Positions 10,849 through 19,680 of a stretch of 64,000 nucleotides of DNA are shown here, in pieces. The notes beneath the pieces were generated by a model. The model saw only the letters and a program-made list of their open reading frames with translations. It was not told the DNA's origin and searched no databases. This stretch comes from Bradyrhizobium sp. AZCC 2262 (lineage in GTDB: Bacteria > Pseudomonadota > Alphaproteobacteria > Rhizobiales > Xanthobacteraceae): the NCBI RefSeq assembly GCF_036924535.1, contig NZ_JAZHRT010000001.1, forward strand, positions 4,154,001-4,218,000. Reading direction: 5' to 3'. The stretch's first letter is position 1. The number at the start of each line of letters is the position of its first letter. The translations under genes and the position numbers were made by a program.

Positions 10849-13077
10849 GTGATTTCTTCCGCCCGCGCCGCCGCCTTGCGATCGACCGCACTGGCCACGA
10901 GCCTGGCGCTGGCTGTTGGATTGGCGGCGCTGCCTTGGGATGCCTGGGCCAATCCAAAAGTTCCCCTGCCGAAACCGCGGCCGATCGCCCGCAACGTCGT
11001 TCCAAAGCCCGCGGCACACACCAGCGCGCCCGCCGCTGCCCATACTCCGACGGCCGCCGCGGCGCCCGCTCCTGCGCCACCCGTTCTCGCGCCTGCGACC
11101 CGCCAGCATGCCGCCTTGCCGCCCCCGCGCAAGCAGGTGCCGCAGGCAGCGGTAGCCGCGACGTCCTCGACGTCGCAGGGAGACAAGGACGCGCTGGAGA
11201 ACGTCATCGAGCTGGTGCGCAAGCAGAAGCCTGGGGATGCCACCCAGCTGCAGGCCTCGATATCGGATCCGGTCGCCCGCAAGCTTGCAGAATGGGTGAT
11301 CCTGCGCAGCGACAACAATAACGCGTCCGTCGAGCGCTACCGTGCATTCGTCTCGGCCAACCCGAGCTGGCCATCGCAGACCTTCCTGCGCCGGCGCCTC
11401 GAGGCAGCCCTATGGGACGACCGCCGCGACGACGCCGCGGTGTGGTCATGGTTCGAAAACGAATCGCCGATTTCGGCCAAGGGCAAGTTCGCCCTGGCGA
11501 AGGCCATGCTCGCGCGCGGCGACCGCACCAATGCCGAACGGCTGGTGCGCGAGGCCTGGCGCAATGATGGCATGTCGGAGGATACCGAGACCGCGGCGCT
11601 CGACATGTTCGGCGCGCTGCTGACGGCGGGCGACCACAAGACGCGGATGGACACGCTGCTTTACAGCACCGAGCAGGAAGCCGGCGGCATGCGCGCCGCC
11701 AAGCGGCTCGGCTCGGGCCATGTCGCGCTGGCCAAGGCGCGCATTGCGGCCAACAAGAAATCCTCGAACCTCCAGTCGCTGCTCGAGGCGGTGCCACGGG
11801 AGCTGCATGGCGACCCCGGCTACATGTTCGCCAGGATCCAGTGGCTGCGCCGCGAAGAGAAGTTCAGCGAGGCCGCGCAGCTCATGCTGGCCGCGCCGAA
11901 GGATCCGAACCGCCTGCACAATCTCAACGAATGGTGGATCGAGCGGCGCTTGCTGGCGCGCAAGATGCTGGACGTCGGCGAGCATCGCACCGCCTATCTG
12001 ATTGCGCGCGATGCAGCACTTCCCTCCCGCGACATCTACAAGACCGAGCAGGAATTCACCGCGGGCTGGATTGCGCTGCGGTTCCTGAAAGATCCGGCCG
12101 TCGCCGCCCAGCACTTCGCGCGCATCGGTGTCGGCAGTGCGAACCCGACCGCACTGGCGCGCGGCGGCTATTGGCAGGGCCGCGCGGCGGAAGCCGCCGG
12201 CCGCATGCAGGAAGCCCGGGCCGCCTACGGCCGCGCCGCCGAACAGTCGACCAGCTATTACGGTCAGCTCGCACGCGCCAAGCTCGGCATGCCGCAGCTC
12301 GAATTGAACGGTGCGCCGACCGGCCGCGGTCGCGGGGGTGAACGGCTGGAGATCGTCCGCGCCGTGCAGCTGCTCTATGAGCTCGACGAGCGCGAGCTTG
12401 CGATTCCGATTTTCGCCGACATGGGCGAGAATGGCGATCCCGAGGCCCTGGCCGGCCTCGGCGAACTCACCTCGCGCCACAGCGACGCCCGCGGCATGCT
12501 GCTGCTCGGCAAGGCCGCGCTCAACCGCGGCCTGCCGTTCGACCATTACGCCTATCCCGTCAACGGCATACCGTCTTTCAAGCAGATCGGACCCGAGGTC
12601 GAGCCGAGCGTCGTCTATTCGATCGCGCGACAGGAAAGCGCCTTCAACCCGGCCGTGGTCTCGCCGGCGCAGGCCTACGGGCTGATGCAGGTGACGCCGG
12701 ACGCCGGACGCTATGTCTGCAAACGGGCTGGCGTCAGCTTCGACCTCAACCGGATGAAGACCGATTCCGTCTACAACGCCGTGCTTGGCGCCGCCGAACT
12801 CGGCGGCCTGCTCGAGGACTACCGCGGCTCCTACATCCTGACCTTCGCCGGCTACAATGCCGGTCGCGGAAGCGTCAAGAAATGGATCGAGCGTTACGGC
12901 GATCCGCGCGATCCCAAGGTCGACGCGGTCGATTGGGTCGAACAGATCCCGTTCTCCGAGACGCGGAATTACGTGCAGCGGATCATGGAGAACCTGCAGG
13001 TCTATCGCGCGCGGTTTGGCGGCGGGACTAGGCTCCAGATCGAAGCTGACCTACGTCGCGGCGCCAGCATCGAATAG
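10849..13077 (+). CDS. slt: Soluble lytic murein transglycosylase
   Basis: Periplasmic enzyme that cleaves glycan strands of peptidoglycan, releasing 1,6-anhydromuropeptides. From GTG 10849 (AGAGGA 6 bases upstream) it has 742 residues. A signal peptide runs to about AWA|NP, then a Pro/Ala-rich linker, a long helical superhelix, and the C-terminal SLT domain with the catalytic Glu in RQESAFNP, AYGLMQVTP and FAGYNAGRGSVKKW. A TTG start 30 bases earlier is possible but lacks a ribosome site. The last 255 bases recur at 19183-19435. Confidence 0.92.
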   Translation: MISSARAAALRSTALATSLALAVGLAALPWDAWANPKVPLPKPRPIARNVVPKPAAHTSAPAAAHTPTAAAAPAPAPPVLAPATRQHAALPPPRKQVPQAAVAATSSTSQGDKDALENVIELVRKQKPGDATQLQASISDPVARKLAEWVILRSDNNNASVERYRAFVSANPSWPSQTFLRRRLEAALWDDRRDDAAVWSWFENESPISAKGKFALAKAMLARGDRTNAERLVREAWRNDGMSEDTETAALDMFGALLTAGDHKTRMDTLLYSTEQEAGGMRAAKRLGSGHVALAKARIAANKKSSNLQSLLEAVPRELHGDPGYMFARIQWLRREEKFSEAAQLMLAAPKDPNRLHNLNEWWIERRLLARKMLDVGEHRTAYLIARDAALPSRDIYKTEQEFTAGWIALRFLKDPAVAAQHFARIGVGSANPTALARGGYWQGRAAEAAGRMQEARAAYGRAAEQSTSYYGQLARAKLGMPQLELNGAPTGRGRGGERLEIVRAVQLLYELDERELAIPIFADMGENGDPEALAGLGELTSRHSDARGMLLLGKAALNRGLPFDHYAYPVNGIPSFKQIGPEVEPSVVYSIARQESAFNPAVVSPAQAYGLMQVTPDAGRYVCKRAGVSFDLNRMKTDSVYNAVLGAAELGGLLEDYRGSYILTFAGYNAGRGSVKKWIERYGDPRDPKVDAVDWVEQIPFSETRNYVQRIMENLQVYRARFGGGTRLQIEADLRRGASIE
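12822..13077 (+). repeat. Left copy of slt 3'-end direct repeat
   Basis: This part of slt, from CCGCGGCTCCTAC to the stop codon, is repeated in the same orientation at 19183-19435. Judged by eye, identity is close to 90 percent, and the right copy lacks one codon. The two copies enclose the phosphatase/sulfatase/FGE genes. Confidence 0.85.
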
Positions 13078-13200
13078 CGGCATTAGAACCTTGCCTCAAG
13101 CATTCTGCGACTTCGCAGCGGCAACAGCGCGGCCAACGATCGCGTGACCCGACTCAGAACAAGCGCGGCTGCTGGATGCTATATGTGGGTATCTAATTAC

Positions 13201-14238
13201 CTAATCAAATGCGAATATTCGGCTCCAGTCCTTCTTCATGTCGGCCACCGTCCACCTGTTCACCGCTGCGGCGTCCAGCGCCACGTCGAGCTTGCCGAAA
13301 TGCGATTGTCGATCGTAGGCGTATTCGCGTTCCGCGTCGGTGTGGTGCACGATCAGGCCGAACCGCGCGCCGCTGGCGCCGAGCGTCGTCCATTGCAGCA
13401 TTTCGAGATCGCCGTCGGAATTGCCGAAGGCTGCAATCGGACGGCGGCCGATATGTTCGTTGATGCCGATCGGCTTTCCCGTCTTGTCGTCGATGAAGTT
13501 GATGTCGGGCAGCCGGAAAAGCGTCGGCGCGCCGTCCTTCATCTCAAATCGAGTCTTGATCGACGATCCGACGACCTGCTCCGGCGGCACGCCGTAGATC
13601 CGCCCGGTCCATGGCCGCATGAACTCGATGCCGCCGCCTGAGACGATGAAGGTCTTGAAGCCATTGGCCCGGAGGTAGGCGAGCAGTTCGAGCATCGGCT
13701 GGTAGACCAGTTCAGTATAGGGGCGCTTGAAGCGGTGATCGCGCGCGGTCGCCAGCCAGTCCGTGACGATCTTCTCAAACTCTGCCGTGGTCATGCCGGC
13801 ATGTGTCGCGGCGATGATTTCGACCAATCCCTTTTCCCCGGACGCCGCCAGCGCCTTCAGATTGCCGTCCAGCACCGCCGCGAACGGCTGCTTGGTCTTC
13901 CATTCCGGATGCATCGGCGCCATGACCTTCACGCGGTCGAGTGCGAAGGCCAGTTGTATGTACATCGGCTGCTCGACCCATAGCGTGCCGTCATTGTCGA
14001 AGGTCGCGATGCGCTGCTCGACCGGTACGAAGAAGGGCCCACCTTGCGTCGTGACGCGCGCGACAAAGTCGAGAATTGAGGCTTTGGTAGCGCCGTCGTT
14101 CCAGGACGGTAGCGGATCGCTCTGCGCTTGAGCTTCCACCGTGGTGGAGCGAAGCGAGGCAGCGAGCAACGGAAGCATCGCCAGGAACGAAAGAAGGCCG
14201 CGACGGTTGATAGCAGGAAAACGGATGATCGGCTTCAT
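13201..14238 (-). CDS. Exported HAD-family phosphatase
   Basis: Predicted phosphohydrolase of 345 residues. The N-terminus has a twin-arginine-like signal (NRRGLLSFLAM, hydrophobic stretch, cleavage near VEAQAQ). HAD motifs follow: I in ATFDNDGTLW, II in TFIVSGGG and IV in IAAFGNSDGD. ATG 14238 has AAGGAG six bases upstream; the open frame extends 33 bases more. It is the last gene of the FGE-sulfatase operon (78-base gap). The substrate is unknown; with the sulfatases it may take part in scavenging esterified sulfur or phosphorus outside the cytoplasm. Confidence 0.8.
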   Translation of the reverse strand: MKPIIRFPAINRRGLLSFLAMLPLLAASLRSTTVEAQAQSDPLPSWNDGATKASILDFVARVTTQGGPFFVPVEQRIATFDNDGTLWVEQPMYIQLAFALDRVKVMAPMHPEWKTKQPFAAVLDGNLKALAASGEKGLVEIIAATHAGMTTAEFEKIVTDWLATARDHRFKRPYTELVYQPMLELLAYLRANGFKTFIVSGGGIEFMRPWTGRIYGVPPEQVVGSSIKTRFEMKDGAPTLFRLPDINFIDDKTGKPIGINEHIGRRPIAAFGNSDGDLEMLQWTTLGASGARFGLIVHHTDAEREYAYDRQSHFGKLDVALDAAAVNRWTVADMKKDWSRIFAFD

Positions 14239-14316
14239 GGTCGACTCCTTTCCGTTGTCAAGCGGGCGCACAGGATCTCGGCGCGCCCGCCATGAAACCA
14301 GTCGAAGCCCTGGCGG

Positions 14317-16026
14317 CTACCTGCTCACTGCCGCCCGGGCCGCCTCGATTTTCGCTTTCACGGCATCAAGGTTAAAGCTCGCGCCCTTCTGCATCGGCGG
14401 AAACTCGATCGCCGTCATCGCCAGCTTTTCCACCTGCTGCTGAACAAACACAAAGCGCCAGAATTCGTATTTGAACCAGTCGAAGTATTGCTGCGCGCCT
14501 TCTTTCGTCCCACTATCGGGCCAGCCCGTGCGCTCGAACGGATCGAGGCGAAGGTTGGTCAGGTAGGGCACGTCAGCCTTGGTTTTTTCACCGAGCCAGC
14601 CTCTGGGCTGGTCGATGAAGCGATACTTGAAGTCGTCGATGCGCACGGCACCGAGTTCGCTCTCTCCGAAGTAAAAGATTTCGTGCCGGTTCGACGGCCC
14701 CTTGCCGGTAATCATGTCCATCTGGTTATAGCCGTCCAGATAGCACTTATAGGTCGTGTCACCGATCTGTTTGCCCTTCTTCAGCTCCTCTGCAATGTTC
14801 GGGTTGCCAGCCGCCGCCAGGAAGGTCGGAAACCAGTCCAGGCCGGAAATGATGCCGTTCTCGACCTTGCCGGCCGGCACCTTGCCCGGCCAACGGATCA
14901 TGCAGGGTACGCGGAAGCCACCTTCCATGACGGTGCCTTTGCTCTGCGCGAAAGGTGTCTGTCCGCCATCAGGCCAGGTGAAGACCTCGGTGCCGTTGTC
15001 GGTGGTGAAGACCACGATGGTGTTGTCGTCCACGCCCATATCCTTGAGCTTCTGCATCACGATGCCGACGTCGTCATCGAGCTGCGCCATGCCGGCTTCA
15101 TGTATCGACCAGCCGTTCTTGGAGTTGCGCGTCGCCTCGTACTTTTGTGAAAGATGCGTGACGATGTGCATCCGGGTCGGGTTGAGCCACAGGAAGAACG
15201 GCTTGTTGTCGGCCTTGGCCTTCTCGATGAACTTCAGGGCGAGATCGCGGATTTCGTCATCTACGGTTTCCATCCTCTTGGGATAAAGCGTTCCGGCATC
15301 CTCGATCCTCTGCTTGCCGACCTTTCCCCAGCGCGGGTCCACCGTCGGGTCATCCACGTTGGTCGCATAGGTATGAAGCATGTTGCGCGGACCGACGACG
15401 TTCAGCAGATCCTGCGGGTAGTTCGGGTGCGCGGGGTCTTCCATCGCGTCGAGATGATAAAGGTAACCGAAGAACTCATCGAAGCCGTGCACCGTCGGCA
15501 AGAATTCATTCTTGTCGCCGAGGTGATTCTTGCCAAATTGGCCGGTGGCGTAACCCATTCCTTTCAACGCCGTGGCGATGGTCACAGCTTGCGCTGGTAT
15601 CCCGATAGCCGCGCCAGCCTGGCCGACCGTGGTCATGCCGGTGCGGATGGGCAACTCGCCGGTGATGAAGTTGGCGCGACCTGCCGTGCAACTCGCCTCG
15701 GCATAATAGTCGGTAAACAACATGCCTTCAGCAGCGAGCTTGTCGAGATTGGGCGTTCGGCCGGCCATCAGGCCGCGGTGATAAGCGCCGATATTCCACA
15801 TGCCGATGTCGTCACCCATGATGACAACGATGTTCGGCCGCTGTCCGGCTGACGCGGGTGCCGGTGTCGGTTGCTGCGCCTGCGCAGAACTTGTTAGCCC
15901 GACCGCGGAGAGTGCGGAAGCGGCGACAAGAGAACTTCCGCTCAACAAGAGATCGCGGCGTTTCATTCCGCTGCCCGATTGCGGGGTAACGTCGGGGGAA
16001 TCTCCAGACGGGCGCTTGTTACTCAT
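14317..16026 (-). CDS. Sulfatase with C-T-A-G-R site, Tat-exported
   Basis: Type I sulfatase-family hydrolase of 569 residues. A Tat signal (MKRRDLLLSGSSLVAAS) begins at residue 21. Metal-binding Asp72-Asp73 lie in IVVIMGDDIG, and the formylglycine site is Cys113 in EASCTAGR, a C-x-A-x-R rather than C-x-P-x-R motif. FGKNHLGD and VVFTTDNGTE carry further active-site Lys, His and Asp residues. ATG 16026 has AGAGGAG upstream. Export by Tat suits folding and FGly formation in the cytoplasm by the FGE encoded upstream. A phosphonate or phosphodiester substrate cannot be excluded. Confidence 0.85.
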   Translation of the reverse strand: MSNKRPSGDSPDVTPQSGSGMKRRDLLLSGSSLVAASALSAVGLTSSAQAQQPTPAPASAGQRPNIVVIMGDDIGMWNIGAYHRGLMAGRTPNLDKLAAEGMLFTDYYAEASCTAGRANFITGELPIRTGMTTVGQAGAAIGIPAQAVTIATALKGMGYATGQFGKNHLGDKNEFLPTVHGFDEFFGYLYHLDAMEDPAHPNYPQDLLNVVGPRNMLHTYATNVDDPTVDPRWGKVGKQRIEDAGTLYPKRMETVDDEIRDLALKFIEKAKADNKPFFLWLNPTRMHIVTHLSQKYEATRNSKNGWSIHEAGMAQLDDDVGIVMQKLKDMGVDDNTIVVFTTDNGTEVFTWPDGGQTPFAQSKGTVMEGGFRVPCMIRWPGKVPAGKVENGIISGLDWFPTFLAAAGNPNIAEELKKGKQIGDTTYKCYLDGYNQMDMITGKGPSNRHEIFYFGESELGAVRIDDFKYRFIDQPRGWLGEKTKADVPYLTNLRLDPFERTGWPDSGTKEGAQQYFDWFKYEFWRFVFVQQQVEKLAMTAIEFPPMQKGASFNLDAVKAKIEAARAAVSR

Positions 16027-16150
16027 GACGTGCTCCTCTTTGTTGTGATGCAGTTGGTTCTGTTCGCTTGATGCATCGGAAGCCCACGTGGCTTGTGGAG
16101 GTGCCGACCGGCCCGGCGCGGGCGTTATCACGTTGCTCGCTATTCCGTTG

Positions 16151-16177
16151 GCGGGCGCCCCGCCGTGGAGCGCCCGC
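16151..16177. promoter_or_regulatory. Hairpin between the two sulfatase genes
   Basis: The inverted repeat GCGGGCGC (16151-16158) / GCGCCCGC (16170-16177) lies in the 180-base gap between the sulfatase genes. There is no T-run on the minus strand, so it is more likely an mRNA-stabilising or attenuating structure than a full terminator. Confidence 0.45.
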
Positions 16178-16206
16178 TTCGTCGGATCACGCTCTGACGT
16201 TCGCAG

Positions 16207-17988
16207 CTAGTCGCTGCGACCGGCGGTTTTGGCCTGCTTGATCTGATTGTAGACCTGACTGAGGTCGTAGCTCGCCGGATCCTGTAGCGGCGGGTACGCC
16301 GAATAGCTCTCGAGTTCCTTCAGCCAGAGCGCCTGGCCGATGGGAAGCATGTTCCAGTCGTAGACGTAGGCTGTCGAAGGGGAGCCGATTACGCCGCCCA
16401 TGCCCATGAGTGTCTTGTATTGTGAACCAATCGAGGTCTCGAACGGGTCTCGCTTGATGTTGACGACCTGGGCCCAGTGATAGGGAAGCGCGCCGGCAAG
16501 AAAGCCCGCCGGGTTGTCGGACACCATCGTGAAGTAGATCTTCCAGTTCTTGTAGCGGACCGCCGAAGGGTCCTTGCCCGAATAGTAGAAGAAGGTATCG
16601 CGCGCCGACTTTTCCGAACGTCCGGAAAGGTATTCGGTCTGATCGACGCCATCGAGCGTGGTCTTCACGATGCCGGGATATTGGCCGGCCTCGATGCGCT
16701 TCTTCAGCGCGTCTCCCTTTGCGCCGCCCGCGATGTTGACAAACGTGGGCAGCCAATCGAGCGCCGCGAAGATGTCGTTCTTGACGGTCCCTGGCTTGAT
16801 GACCCCCGGCCAGCGGATGACCGCCGGAGCGCGCATGCCGCCCTCCCAGGTGCTCAGCTTGCCGCCCTTGAACGGCGTGGTGCCGCCGTCCGGAAAGGTG
16901 ATGGTCTCGGCGCCGTTGTCGGTCGTGAACACGATGATCGTGTTGTCGAGCTGACCCATGTCCTGGAGCTTCTTCAGCACATAGCCGATGTTGTCATCCA
17001 TCTGCTTCATGCCGGCCTCGTTGAGGCCCCAGTCCTTGCCGCCGGGCTCGCCGACCATGGCCGCGTACTTGTCATTCAGCACGGTCGTGATGTGCATGCG
17101 CGCAGGGTTGTACCAGACGAAGAAAGGCTTGCCCGTCGTCTTCGGATCGTTGCGATCGATGAAGTCGATGACCTTGGCCGAGATTTCTTCGTCGACACCC
17201 TTCGATCGTTCGAGCGTCAGCGGGCCCTGATCGATGCATTGCTGAGTCTTGGCTGTACCATCCGACTTGCACGACAGGACGTTGCGCGGAGGCGTCAGGC
17301 AAACCGCCGTTTTCGGATCGACCGCGCCCGGCACTTCAGGAATGCCGGGGATCGGCGTATTCTTGCATGGCGGGGCAATCGACTGCTGGGTGGGAGACTT
17401 GTTGAGGTCCGGGAAGCTCACGCCCTGCATCGCATCGAGATGATACAGGTAGCCCCAGTATTCCTGGAAGCCATGCGCGGTCGGCAGCGCATCGGTGTGA
17501 TCGCCGAGATGGTTCTTGCCGAACTCGCCGGTGTTGTAGCCGAGATCGAGCAGAAACCTGGCGAGCGCGGGCGTGCCGGGCCGCAGATAGGACGGGCTGC
17601 CGGGCAGTTGCGGAGGAATCATGCCGGTGCGCAGCGGATGCATGCCGGTGAAAAAGGCGTTCCGGCCTGCGGTGCAGCTCTGCTCGGCATAGTAGTGCGT
17701 GAAGATCGCGCCTTCGTTGCCGATGCGATCGATGTTGGGCGTCTCGCCGACCATCAGGCCGCGATGGTAGATGCTCGGCTGGTAGAGGCCGATGTCGTCG
17801 CCCATGATGAAAAGAATATTGGGCTTCTGGGCTGGCTGCTGCGCGGCTGCGGGTGTGCTGACCGGTACGGCCAGCGGCATCATCATCGTCGCGCCCAGCA
17901 GGACAGCGCGGGAACGCTTAAGCCAACCAGGCGTCTTGCGTGGCGGCGCTGCAATAAAAGATGGCTTAGCCAGCATGGTACTCAACAT
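16207..17988 (-). CDS. Sulfatase with C-T-A-G-R site (second copy)
   Basis: A 593-residue paralogue of the downstream sulfatase. The N-terminus has basic residues (LKRSR), a hydrophobic segment and a likely cleavage after STPAAAQ, without a clear twin-arginine motif. Asp64-Asp65 lie in LFIMGDDIG, Cys105 in EQSCTAGR is the predicted formylglycine residue, and FGKNHLGD and VFTTDNGAE are conserved. A Cys-containing insertion near residues 195-250 is absent from the other sulfatase. It starts 17 bases after the FGE gene. Substrate unknown. Confidence 0.84.
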   Translation of the reverse strand: MLSTMLAKPSFIAAPPRKTPGWLKRSRAVLLGATMMMPLAVPVSTPAAAQQPAQKPNILFIMGDDIGLYQPSIYHRGLMVGETPNIDRIGNEGAIFTHYYAEQSCTAGRNAFFTGMHPLRTGMIPPQLPGSPSYLRPGTPALARFLLDLGYNTGEFGKNHLGDHTDALPTAHGFQEYWGYLYHLDAMQGVSFPDLNKSPTQQSIAPPCKNTPIPGIPEVPGAVDPKTAVCLTPPRNVLSCKSDGTAKTQQCIDQGPLTLERSKGVDEEISAKVIDFIDRNDPKTTGKPFFVWYNPARMHITTVLNDKYAAMVGEPGGKDWGLNEAGMKQMDDNIGYVLKKLQDMGQLDNTIIVFTTDNGAETITFPDGGTTPFKGGKLSTWEGGMRAPAVIRWPGVIKPGTVKNDIFAALDWLPTFVNIAGGAKGDALKKRIEAGQYPGIVKTTLDGVDQTEYLSGRSEKSARDTFFYYSGKDPSAVRYKNWKIYFTMVSDNPAGFLAGALPYHWAQVVNIKRDPFETSIGSQYKTLMGMGGVIGSPSTAYVYDWNMLPIGQALWLKELESYSAYPPLQDPASYDLSQVYNQIKQAKTAGRSD

Positions 17989-18005
17989 AGCTACGCTCTC
18001 CCTGT

Positions 18006-19007
18006 TTATGATGCATCAGAGGCTGCTCGCCTGATGCACCGAAAGCCAAGATGACTCGTGGAAGTATCAACCGGCTCCGCATGACGCGCTGCCGGCCGGT
18101 AGCGTCGGCAGTAGTTCGGCGCGCACAAATGCGAGCCGCCTTTGATGACCTTTCGTGGAATTTTCACATTGGTGGTTCTGGGGTCGTAACTGTCGGCCTC
18201 GCGGCCGCCGCGCGGGTTCTCCGGGATGCAGCAGGCCTTCGCGGCATCCGCCTGATGCTTTGACGAATACCAGTCGGCCGTCCATTCCCAGACGTTACCG
18301 ATCATGTCGTACAGGCCGTACTCGTTCGGCGGGAATGCGCTGACCGGCGAGGTGCGCTCGAAGCCATCGGCATTGGTATTCTGGCGAGGGAATTCACCCT
18401 GCCAGGTGTTGGCCATGTGACGGCCAGCCGGCGTGAACTCTTCGCCCCACGCGAACTCGGCGCCGTCGAGCCCCCCGCGCGCCGCAAATTCCCATTCGGC
18501 TTCGGTTGGCAAATCCTTGCCAGCCCATTTTGCGTAGGCGAGCGCATCGCTGAAAGCCACATGCACGACTGGATGATCGTCCAGCCCGCGGATGTTACTT
18601 CCGGGTCCGTAGGGATGCCGCCAGTCCGCGCCCTTGGCGAAGGTCCACCACTGGCTGAAGTCCCGAAGACTGACCGGATGGTTGGGCGGAGAGAACATCA
18701 GCGAGCCCGCGTAGATCATATGCGGGAGCATTCCCGGATAATCCTTGGGGTCAGGTGTGATCTCGGCGACGGTGACGTGCTTGGTAGCCCTCGCGAATTC
18801 CCTGAACTGCCGGTTCGTCACGGGATGGCGGTCCATCCAGAAACCATCCACGGTGACGCGGTGCGCTGGAGCTTCTTCGGGATAGTGCTTGTCTGAACCC
18901 ATGCGGAAAGTGCCGCCGGGTATCCAGATCATCCCGCCAGGTTGCGAGGAGAGGTCATCAACCGTGACATCAGCCTTGGCAGTGGAGGCAGAGAATAGCG
19001 CCGTCAT
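18006..19007 (-). CDS. Formylglycine-generating enzyme (SUMF1/FGE family)
   Basis: Oxidises the sulfatase active-site Cys to formylglycine, using O2 and copper in the aerobic FGE family. In the 333-residue product the domain starts at GGMIWIPGGTFRMGSD. It includes HPVTNRQFREF, LPTEAEWEFAARGG, NEYGLYDMIGNVWEWTADW, and the catalytic pair Cys295/Cys300 in GGSHLCAPNYCRRYRPAAR. That pair marks a true FGE rather than a generic FGE-sulfatase fold protein. No signal peptide, so it is cytoplasmic. First gene of the operon, with GGGGG before the ATG and two FixK/FNR-type boxes about 98 and 122 bases upstream. Confidence 0.9.
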   Translation of the reverse strand: MTALFSASTAKADVTVDDLSSQPGGMIWIPGGTFRMGSDKHYPEEAPAHRVTVDGFWMDRHPVTNRQFREFARATKHVTVAEITPDPKDYPGMLPHMIYAGSLMFSPPNHPVSLRDFSQWWTFAKGADWRHPYGPGSNIRGLDDHPVVHVAFSDALAYAKWAGKDLPTEAEWEFAARGGLDGAEFAWGEEFTPAGRHMANTWQGEFPRQNTNADGFERTSPVSAFPPNEYGLYDMIGNVWEWTADWYSSKHQADAAKACCIPENPRGGREADSYDPRTTNVKIPRKVIKGGSHLCAPNYCRRYRPAARHAEPVDTSTSHLGFRCIRRAASDAS

Positions 19008-19097
19008 GTCACCCCCAGGTGATTATCGCGGTATGCTGGCCACAGACCACTCCCGCGAGCATGAGCGTGATTTCACCCGCGGGGGATATCGGGGACG

Positions 19098-19111
19098 TTG
19101 ATCTAGATCAA
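19098..19111. promoter_or_regulatory. FixK/FNR-type box 1
   Basis: TTGATCTAGATCAA is a perfect palindrome matching the FNR/FixK consensus TTGAT-N4-ATCAA. Its centre is about 98 bases upstream of the FGE start codon on the minus strand. With class II spacing (-41.5) the transcript would begin near 19063, giving a leader of about 55 bases. Confidence 0.75.
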
Positions 19112-19121
19112 TCGGCGACCT

Positions 19122-19135
19122 TTGATCTAAATCAA
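19122..19135. promoter_or_regulatory. FixK/FNR-type box 2
   Basis: TTGATCTAAATCAA matches TTGAT-N4-ATCAA exactly in both half-sites. Its centre lies 24 bases from box 1, close to two and a third helical turns. It could serve the FGE operon with box 1, or a rightward promoter that now faces only a gene fragment. Confidence 0.75.
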
Positions 19136-19144
19136 TGAGTCTGA

Positions 19145-19435
19145 TTGCGACCATTCCTTTCAAACGCTCAGGCGTACTTGGGCCGCGGCTCCTACGTCCT
19201 GACCTTTGCCGGCTACAATGCCGGCCGCGGCAGCGTCAAGAAATGGATCGAGCGTTACGGCCCGCGCGATCTCAAGATCGACGCGGTCGACCGGATCGAG
19301 CAGATCCCGTTCTCCGAGACCCGCAACTACGTGCAGCGGATCATGGAGAACCTGCAGGTGTCTCGCGCGAGATTCGGCGGCGGGACCAGGCTCCAGATCG
19401 AAGCCGACCTGCATCGCGGCGCCAGCGTCCAATAG
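19145..19435 (+). pseudogene. Fragment of slt (C-terminal SLT domain only)
   Basis: From about 19183 the frame encodes RGSYVLTFAGYNAGRGSVKK... through RASVQ, nearly the same as the last 85 residues of the complete slt gene at 10849-13077. The catalytic Glu segment (RQESAFNP) is missing, so it cannot be an active enzyme. The preceding NAQAYLG may be what remains of SPAQAYGL, implying an internal deletion; this is weaker. One codon is deleted relative to slt and several substitutions are present. Confidence 0.85.
19183..19435 (+). repeat. Right copy of slt 3'-end direct repeat
   Basis: Same-orientation partner of 12822-13077. Its presence on the far side of the sulfatase operon suggests that the operon entered within or beside slt, or that slt was partly duplicated. 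Confidence 0.85.
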
Positions 19436-19680
19436 GGGATCGCGCGTCAGCGCTGGTTGTGCAGCCGCCTCGCTCCGTTCGCGGCCAGACCTCCGTCACC
19501 CAACCTTGTTTGCGTTGAGGCTGTTAGAGCGGGATGGGTCGATTCGCCGCCAGCGCGAAGTACCAACGATCTCATGTCCGGACGCAGTGCAGATACTGGA
19601 TGACGGTACACCGCAGGGCCCAGACCCAAAATCGCGAAAACAACCCCATGCAAAGTACAATGGGCCCGGTCGCGGCACAC
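19436..19680. other. Intergenic, nothing recognised
   Basis: Lies between the slt fragment and the porin terminator. Short open frames on both strands lack ribosome sites and family motifs, and I see no repeat or RNA signature. The next 60 bases hold the porin terminator. Confidence 0.4.

What the first reader, a model, noticed from the sequence alone, without database searches (positions are those of the whole stretch)
19098..19135. Two perfect FixK/FNR boxes in front of an oxygen-dependent maturase operon
TTGATCTAGATCAA and TTGATCTAAATCAA both match TTGAT-N4-ATCAA and lie 24 bases apart, about 100 bases before the FGE gene. FixK/FNR proteins switch genes when oxygen is low, while FGE needs O2 to make formylglycine. 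Control of this operon by oxygen limitation would be unexpected: it may serve microaerobic (bacteroid-like) conditions, or the boxes may repress under low oxygen.
Basis: partly seen in the sequence, partly recalled or inferred. Interest (0 to 1): 0.75.

Follow-up and report, generated by a model that had tools for sequence, protein, structure and literature searches.

The report
FixK boxes before sulfatase maturase operon
In Bradyrhizobium soil and root bacteria, genes for sulfate-removing enzymes and for the oxygen-using helper that activates them often carry a conserved low-oxygen control switch, so cells probably make more of this oxygen-hungry helper just when oxygen runs short.

Summary
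TTGATCTAGATCAA (19098-19111) and TTGATCTAAATCAA (19122-19135) are the only two perfect TTGAT-N4-ATCAA sites in the window (0.03 expected), of 24 in the 9.48-Mb genome. Their centres lie 97.5 and 121.5 nt before a copper-type formylglycine-generating enzyme (FGE) gene heading an operon with two CTAGR sulfatases and a HAD protein. The box is conserved: 33 of 46 close FGE homologs (>=81.8% identity) in the genus have a perfect box upstream, against 0 of 24 more distant copies scanned. In those 46 loci 35 boxes fall in 18.4 kb upstream and 1 in 232.6 kb elsewhere. The genome encodes a FixK close to the solved FixK2. Operon and box also occur in a genome of USDA 110's length. Best reading: FixK activates the operon in microoxia, making more of an FGE whose rate falls with O2. 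The second box is a tandem duplication seen only here and in one relative. Eleven of the 13 homologs without a box carry another palindrome, TTGGACC-N2-GGTCCAA. Expression was not tested.

The parts
19098..19111 (-). proximal FixK-type box TTGATCTAGATCAA (perfect palindrome); at -40.5 it predicts a transcript start near 19064
   Evidence: a perfect box upstream in 33 of 46 close homologs; the -40.5 rule from PMC5582078
19122..19135 (-). distal FixK-type box TTGATTTAGATCAA (as read on the minus strand); part of a tandem repeat with the proximal unit
   Evidence: two boxes seen only here and in G191/L107 among 46 close homologs
18006..19007 (-). formylglycine-generating enzyme (FGE/SUMF1), 333 aa, GGSHLCAPNYCRRYR active-site pair of cysteines
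   Evidence: PF03781 E 4.7e-87; solved FGEs E down to 1.7e-76, both cysteines aligned
16207..17988 (-). type I sulfatase S1, CTAGR motif at residue 105, N-terminal export signal (by eye)
   Evidence: PF00884; best solved relative 7aj0 arylsulfatase; motif
14317..16131 (-). type I sulfatase S2, CTAGR motif at residue 148, MKRRDLLL twin-arginine-like signal (by eye); listed start uncertain
   Evidence: PF00884; motif
13201..14271 (-). HAD-IB-like hydrolase with twin-arginine-like signal (by eye), last gene of the presumed operon
   Evidence: PF12710; found downstream of FGE and sulfatase in many of the homologs
19183..19438 (+). 3'-end fragment of a lytic transglycosylase gene, a second copy of 12822-13080; lies on the far side of the boxes and is not their conserved target
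   Evidence: no such fragment detected in the 2 kb upstream of FGE held for relatives L221-L224

Best explanation
The two sites are real FixK operators of the FGE-sulfatase-sulfatase-HAD operon on the minus strand. FixK, made or activated when O2 is low, binds the proximal box at about -40.5 and recruits RNA polymerase to start near 19064, so the operon rises in microoxia. FGE turns the motif cysteine of the sulfatases into formylglycine with Cu(I) and O2. Because FGE binds O2 very weakly, its rate per molecule falls with O2; co-induction of maturase and sulfatases keeps some maturation going as long as traces of O2 remain. Shown here: the sites, their conservation, the FixK gene, the FGE class and the gene order. 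Inferred: binding, direction of control, start site, one transcript, and the dosage-compensation purpose.
For: Only two perfect sites in the window. Perfect box within 500 bp upstream (60 bases of the frame included) in 33 of 46 homologs >=81.8% identical and 0 of 24 at 72-80%; with the cut at 82% it is 32 of 45 and 1 of 25. The best upstream match is 10 of 10 in those 33 and only 7 to 9 of 10 in the other 13. In the 46 loci: 35 boxes in 18,400 bp upstream, 1 in 232,626 bp elsewhere; of 20 orders of the half-site letters, TTGAT hits 33 of 46 upstream regions and the next best 1 of 46. The four spacer bases, free in the search, are also kept: [CT]-T-A-[GA] in all 35 box loci aligned (G at the last place in 34). 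The F label sits in more than one clade of the FGE tree; L063 and L079 carry a box well outside the main clade. The genome has one FixK at E<=1e-60, 281 bits to solved FixK2 4i2o with the same recognition helix LGLTLETVSRALS; by eye it is the only Crp/Fnr protein printed with an E..SR helix. 7 of the 24 boxes lie in 27 kb around that fixK. In the USDA 110-length genome the box centre is 72.5 nt before the FGE ATG, leaving about 32 nt of leader for a start at +40.5; FixK2-type promoters with mapped starts are similar (nosR +40.5; norC start 45 bp downstream of a box). FGE O2 dissociation constant above about 1 mM in S. coelicolor (PMC12123546). No anaerobic sulfatase maturase over its cut-off (best 142 of 349 bits; the two best of four hits fit cyclophane maturases better).
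Against: 13 of 46 close homologs lack the box, so it is not essential to the operon. The homologs are related, so 33 is not a count of independent events. The 10 fixed letters of the aligned boxes are invariant by selection and prove nothing by themselves. No good -10 element is visible; the promoter scan of 13000-19300 found nothing near the start. The B. diazoefficiens microoxia paper names no sulfatase or FGE in its main text; supplements and the FixK2 regulon paper (Mesa 2008) could not be read. The sulfatase motif is CTAGR, not the textbook CXPXR.
Confidence: 0.72

Rival explanations
1. FixK represses the operon: in low O2 the protein bound at the two boxes blocks transcription, so that the O2-dependent maturase is shut off when it cannot work.
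For: A logic that fits an O2-requiring enzyme; two boxes close together could occlude the promoter; no start was mapped and no promoter-like site was found here, so the geometry is unknown.
Against: In 19 of the 33 box-bearing homologs the box centre sits 60 to 69 nt before the aligned start and in the USDA 110-length genome 72.5 nt before the ATG, which suits activation at -40.5; FixK2 is described as an activator (PMC5582078, title and passages).
Confidence: 0.13
2. The sites are used by another Crp/Fnr regulator, for example one answering nitric oxide, and not by FixK.
For: Crp/Fnr proteins share TTG-N8-CAA-type sites; 17 of the 25 HTH_Crp_2 matches in the genome pass the cut-off.
Against: By eye, of the Crp/Fnr proteins printed (not all 25 matches) only the FixK (L184) has the E..SR recognition helix; the nirK and norC boxes quoted in PMC5582078 look different; G233, with no FixK at E<=1e-60, also has no box at its FGE.
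Confidence: 0.1
3. The boxes are a chance or vestigial match without a role.
For: 13 of 46 close homologs do without.
Against: Enrichment upstream of the gene far above the rest of the loci and above every rearranged half-site.
Confidence: 0.03

Closest known systems
FixK2 regulon of Bradyrhizobium (for example nosRZDYFLX, napEDABC)
   Same: Same box type (napE box TTGATCCAGATCAA quoted in PMC5582078), FixK2-type regulator in the genome, box placed to allow a start about 40 bp downstream
   Different: Target is an O2-consuming protein maturase with its sulfatases; searches of the held papers found none with both FGE and FixK, nor with FixK2, sulfatase and Bradyrhizobium together
Aerobic FGE-sulfatase operons
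   Same: FGE with both active-site cysteines next to type I sulfatases
   Different: Low-oxygen control box; CTAGR instead of CXPXR in both sulfatases; a HAD protein in the operon
E. coli yfiD, two FNR sites giving a microaerobic peak (recalled; one search listed six papers with these words, none of which I read)
   Same: Two sites of one O2-responsive Crp/Fnr regulator in front of one promoter
   Different: Here the sites are 24 bp apart, about 2.3 helical turns; the yfiD spacing is larger (recalled). No peak has been measured here

Membership tests
FixK/FNR operator | match to TTG(A/C)-N6-(T/G)CAA, at best TTGAT-N4-ATCAA | tested here: met
   two perfect matches; FixK2 consensus from PMC5582078
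FixK/FNR operator | conserved upstream of the same gene in relatives | tested here: met
   33 of 46 close homologs; 13 of 46 lack it
FixK/FNR operator | cognate regulator encoded in the genome | tested here: met
   FixK at G000:C1:1740905-1741585, 281 bits to 4i2o
FixK/FNR operator | regulator binds and changes transcription with O2 | not testable with these tools
   needs footprinting and RNA work
FixK2-dependent promoter | transcript start about 40.5 bp from the box centre | tested here: inconclusive
   distance to ATG allows it (97.5 nt here, 72.5 nt in G027); no start mapped, no clear -10
O2-dependent FGE | SUMF1 family with the two active-site cysteines | tested here: met
FGE substrate sulfatase | CXPXR motif | tested here: not met
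   both have CTAGR; the C-X-A-X-R variant is known to me from memory only
anaerobic sulfatase maturase as an alternative route | radical SAM protein over the TIGR03942 cut-off | tested here: not met
   four matches, best 142.4 bits against 349.45; the two best were examined

The most novel reading that the evidence does not exclude
The operon has been handed from one regulator to another. An older palindromic operator TTGGACC-N2-GGTCCAA (11 close homologs with it alone) was joined by a FixK box (6 with both) and then lost (27 with FixK alone). In the window's lineage the FixK box was further doubled in tandem, which may turn plain activation into a response that peaks in microoxia and falls in full anoxia, the right shape for a maturase that needs O2. 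FixK would thus dose an O2-limited protein maturase, the reverse of the usual low-oxygen swap to an O2-independent enzyme.
Probability: 0.3. Interest if true: 0.72.

Novelty: new member of a known kind. Interest (0 to 1): 0.57.

Why it matters
Low-oxygen regulators often replace O2-dependent enzymes by O2-independent ones (general knowledge). Here a conserved low-oxygen switch sits on an enzyme that needs O2 and binds it very weakly, which suggests that bacteria may raise the dose of an O2-limited maturase instead. The same operon and box lie in the genome with the length of B. diazoefficiens USDA 110, where a fixK2 mutant exists and transcript starts have been mapped, so the question can be tested at once. 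It also ties organic sulfur release to microoxic life in Bradyrhizobium.

Tried and rejected
The lytic-transglycosylase fragment on the + strand as target: rejected, because relatives with the box (L221-L224) show no such fragment in the 2 kb upstream held. A bacteroid-like programme in this strain: weakened, no CcoN found (of the 8 matches I examined L213, L214 and L215, L216 is the same frame as L214, and L209-L212 were not examined). FixL/FixJ: the FixL family search gave only sub-threshold histidine kinases (best 262 of 850 bits), so the sensor above FixK stays unknown; a response regulator with a LuxR-type domain lies beside fixK. An anaerobic maturase backup: none over the cut-off. A gene beside some palindrome sites was thought DUF1134-like; Pfam gave no hit. 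Promoter and terminator scans were uninformative (1 promoter-like against 1.6 by chance; 6 terminator-like against 5.3). Literature searches for FixK with sulfatase or FGE, and for sulfatases of Bradyrhizobium, showed no relevant paper (listings only). Not all FGE matches were fetched: 70 were scanned (46 at >=81.8%, 24 below); the other listed ones and the unlisted ones were not. The cut of 81.8% was set after seeing the data. The fourth FGE-family match of this genome was not examined. The FGE tree has many open forks (40 of 75 inner branches), and the palindrome-only label is not clustered on it (13 changes; 146 of 500 shuffles as low), so the order of gains and losses in the novel case rests on the mere existence of all three states.

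Full report
OBSERVATION. The window is part of a 9,475,967-bp single-contig genome with 24 such sites; the reversed pattern has 1. Box centres are 97.5 and 121.5 nt before the FGE start at 19007, minus strand.

OPERON. Downstream on the minus strand lie FGE (18006-19007), sulfatase S1 (16207-17988), sulfatase S2 (14317-16131) and a HAD-IB-like hydrolase (13201-14271). FGE matches solved FGEs, with both active-site cysteines aligned to those of the human enzyme. Both sulfatases carry CTAGR, not CXPXR, and resemble arylsulfatase structures. Gaps of 17, 75 and 45 nt between the listed frames suggest one transcript; the terminator-like sites found are no more than chance. The order FGE-sulfatase(-sulfatase)-HAD recurs in many of the loci compared, with or without the box.

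CONSERVATION. FGE was searched in 265 genomes of the genus; 153 had a match at 1e-80. I scanned 500 bp upstream in 70 whole-genome loci (L102-L131, L139-L178): perfect box in 33 of 46 at >=81.8% identity and 0 of 24 below; with the cut at 82%, 32 of 45 and 1 of 25. One of the 24, L174, has 9 of 10. Best upstream scores among the 46 are 10 of 10 in 33 and 7 to 9 of 10 in 13. Across the 46 loci 35 boxes lie in 18,400 bp upstream and 1 in 232,626 bp elsewhere; among 20 orders of the half-site letters TTGAT stands out with 33 of 46 against at most 1 of 46. In 35 aligned box loci the ten searched letters are fixed by selection, but the four free spacer letters are kept as well: C or T, then T and A without exception, then G in 34 and A in 1; most flanking columns vary. 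The box is therefore very likely under selection with the FGE operon. Relatives share descent, so the 33 are not independent. On the FGE tree (78 rows) the FixK-only label needs 9 changes (shuffled mean 23.7), at least 2 of them forced by strongly supported branches, and a box in any state needs 11; L063 and L079 lie outside the main clade. Gains and losses cannot be told apart there.

REGULATOR. The genome has one FixK at E<=1e-60. This protein, L184, scores 281 bits to solved FixK2 4i2o, with an identical recognition helix LGLTLETVSRALS. At the place that I count as residue 183 in 4i2o it has serine; that FixK2's redox-sensitive cysteine is number 183 and that 4i2o carries a serine there is recalled. 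Seven of 24 boxes lie within 27 kb at 1.724-1.751 Mb around this gene, among pyruvate-formate-lyase-like, formate/nitrite transporter, phosphotransacetylase, acetate kinase, CoA-transferase, phasin and SulP genes. One further box precedes a 5-aminolevulinate synthase gene; several of the 24 lie inside or far from frames and may be chance. FixK is found in 44 of 45 genomes with these homologs; the one without, G233, has no FixK box at its FGE. Since the palindrome-only genomes other than G233 do have a FixK, the absence of the box is not explained by absence of FixK.

TWO BOXES. Single-box relatives L103-L106 have TTGATTTAGATCAA followed by GATCGCCG(A/G)TTT; G191 (L107) and the window have this 23-24 bp unit twice. 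So the 24-bp spacing most likely comes from a tandem duplication in their lineage (loss of one unit in the others is possible). In the window the spacers of the two units have diverged while both boxes remain perfect. 24 bp is about 2.3 helical turns, not a standard phasing for a second activator; what the second box does is open.

SECOND ELEMENT. Of the 13 close homologs without the box, 11 share TTGGACCACGGTCCAA (14 of 14 specified bases) 71-91 bp upstream; 6 have both this element (12-14 of 14) and the FixK box; 27 have FixK alone; 2 have neither (loci without the element score mostly 8-11). It also occurs before some more distant copies (L156, L168, L039, L030). It does not occur in the window's genome, even with one mismatch (pattern read backwards: 2). 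In 19 chosen genomes it occurs in 14, 21 sites in all, 0 to 4 each (the backwards control is 0 in most but 10 in G099 and 3 in G036). 13 of the 21 sites are the ones before these FGE genes; one (L248) lies before another sulfatase; three (L249, L251, L254) lie beside related small secreted-protein genes without a Pfam family; two (L246, L255) lie by other genes; two were not examined.

MODEL STRAIN. G027 has a 9,105,828-bp chromosome, the published size of B. diazoefficiens USDA 110 (PMC7709874 Table 1, passage seen). It has FGE (5253390-5252395), an S1 relative (82%) and the HAD gene (83%), with TTGATCTAGATCAA at 5253456, centre 72.5 nt before the ATG. A start at +40.5, as mapped for nosR (PMC5582078, passages seen), would leave about 32 nt of leader.

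WHY OXYGEN CONTROL MAKES SENSE. For S. coelicolor FGE the O2 dissociation constant is given as above about 1 mM (PMC12123546, passage seen), so in cells the rate should fall in proportion to O2 (inference). The genome has no radical-SAM sulfatase maturase over the family cut-off; the two best sub-threshold hits fit cyclophane maturases better, the other two were not examined. Raising FGE dose with its sulfatases is then a plausible microoxic response. The genome has four FGE-family matches at E<=1e-80; the two others that I examined have no box (L169, L170), so this copy looks like the low-oxygen one.

LIMITS. No transcript, binding or start-site data were available. Searches of held papers for FixK with sulfatase or FGE gave none on this (listings only), but the FixK2 regulon paper of 2008 is not held and supplements could not be read, so the link may already sit unremarked in a published table.

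Noticed in passing
12822-13080 and 19183-19438: The 3' end of a lytic transglycosylase gene is present twice as direct repeats (88-95% identical) flanking the sulfatase operon; relatives L221-L224 show no copy in the 2 kb upstream of FGE, and in G191 (L224) a gene 96% identical lies beyond the HAD end. Looks like a local duplication event.
   Followed up: partly
L108-L111, L113, L115, L116, L119, L120, L148, L153 and others: A conserved palindrome TTGGACC-N2-GGTCCAA stands in place of, or beside, the FixK box before FGE operons and is rare (0-4 copies in each of 19 genomes); its regulator is unknown.
   Followed up: partly
G000:C1:1720000-1755500 (L008, L009): FixK-box-rich cluster with fixK, pyruvate-formate-lyase-like, formate/nitrite transporter, pta, ackA, phasin and CoA-transferase genes: a candidate anaerobic island.
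   Followed up: partly
G000 whole genome: No CcoN (cbb3 oxidase) was detected although 8 COX1-family matches exist; unusual for Bradyrhizobium (recalled).
   Followed up: partly
L184:1480-2163: The FixK protein has serine where, from memory, B. diazoefficiens FixK2 has its redox-sensitive Cys183.
   Followed up: no
G000:C1:926253-927308 and 5657187-5658194 (L265, L266): Two radical SAM/SPASM proteins resembling cyclophane-forming peptide maturases; L266 passes the GrrM/OscB cut-off.
   Followed up: partly
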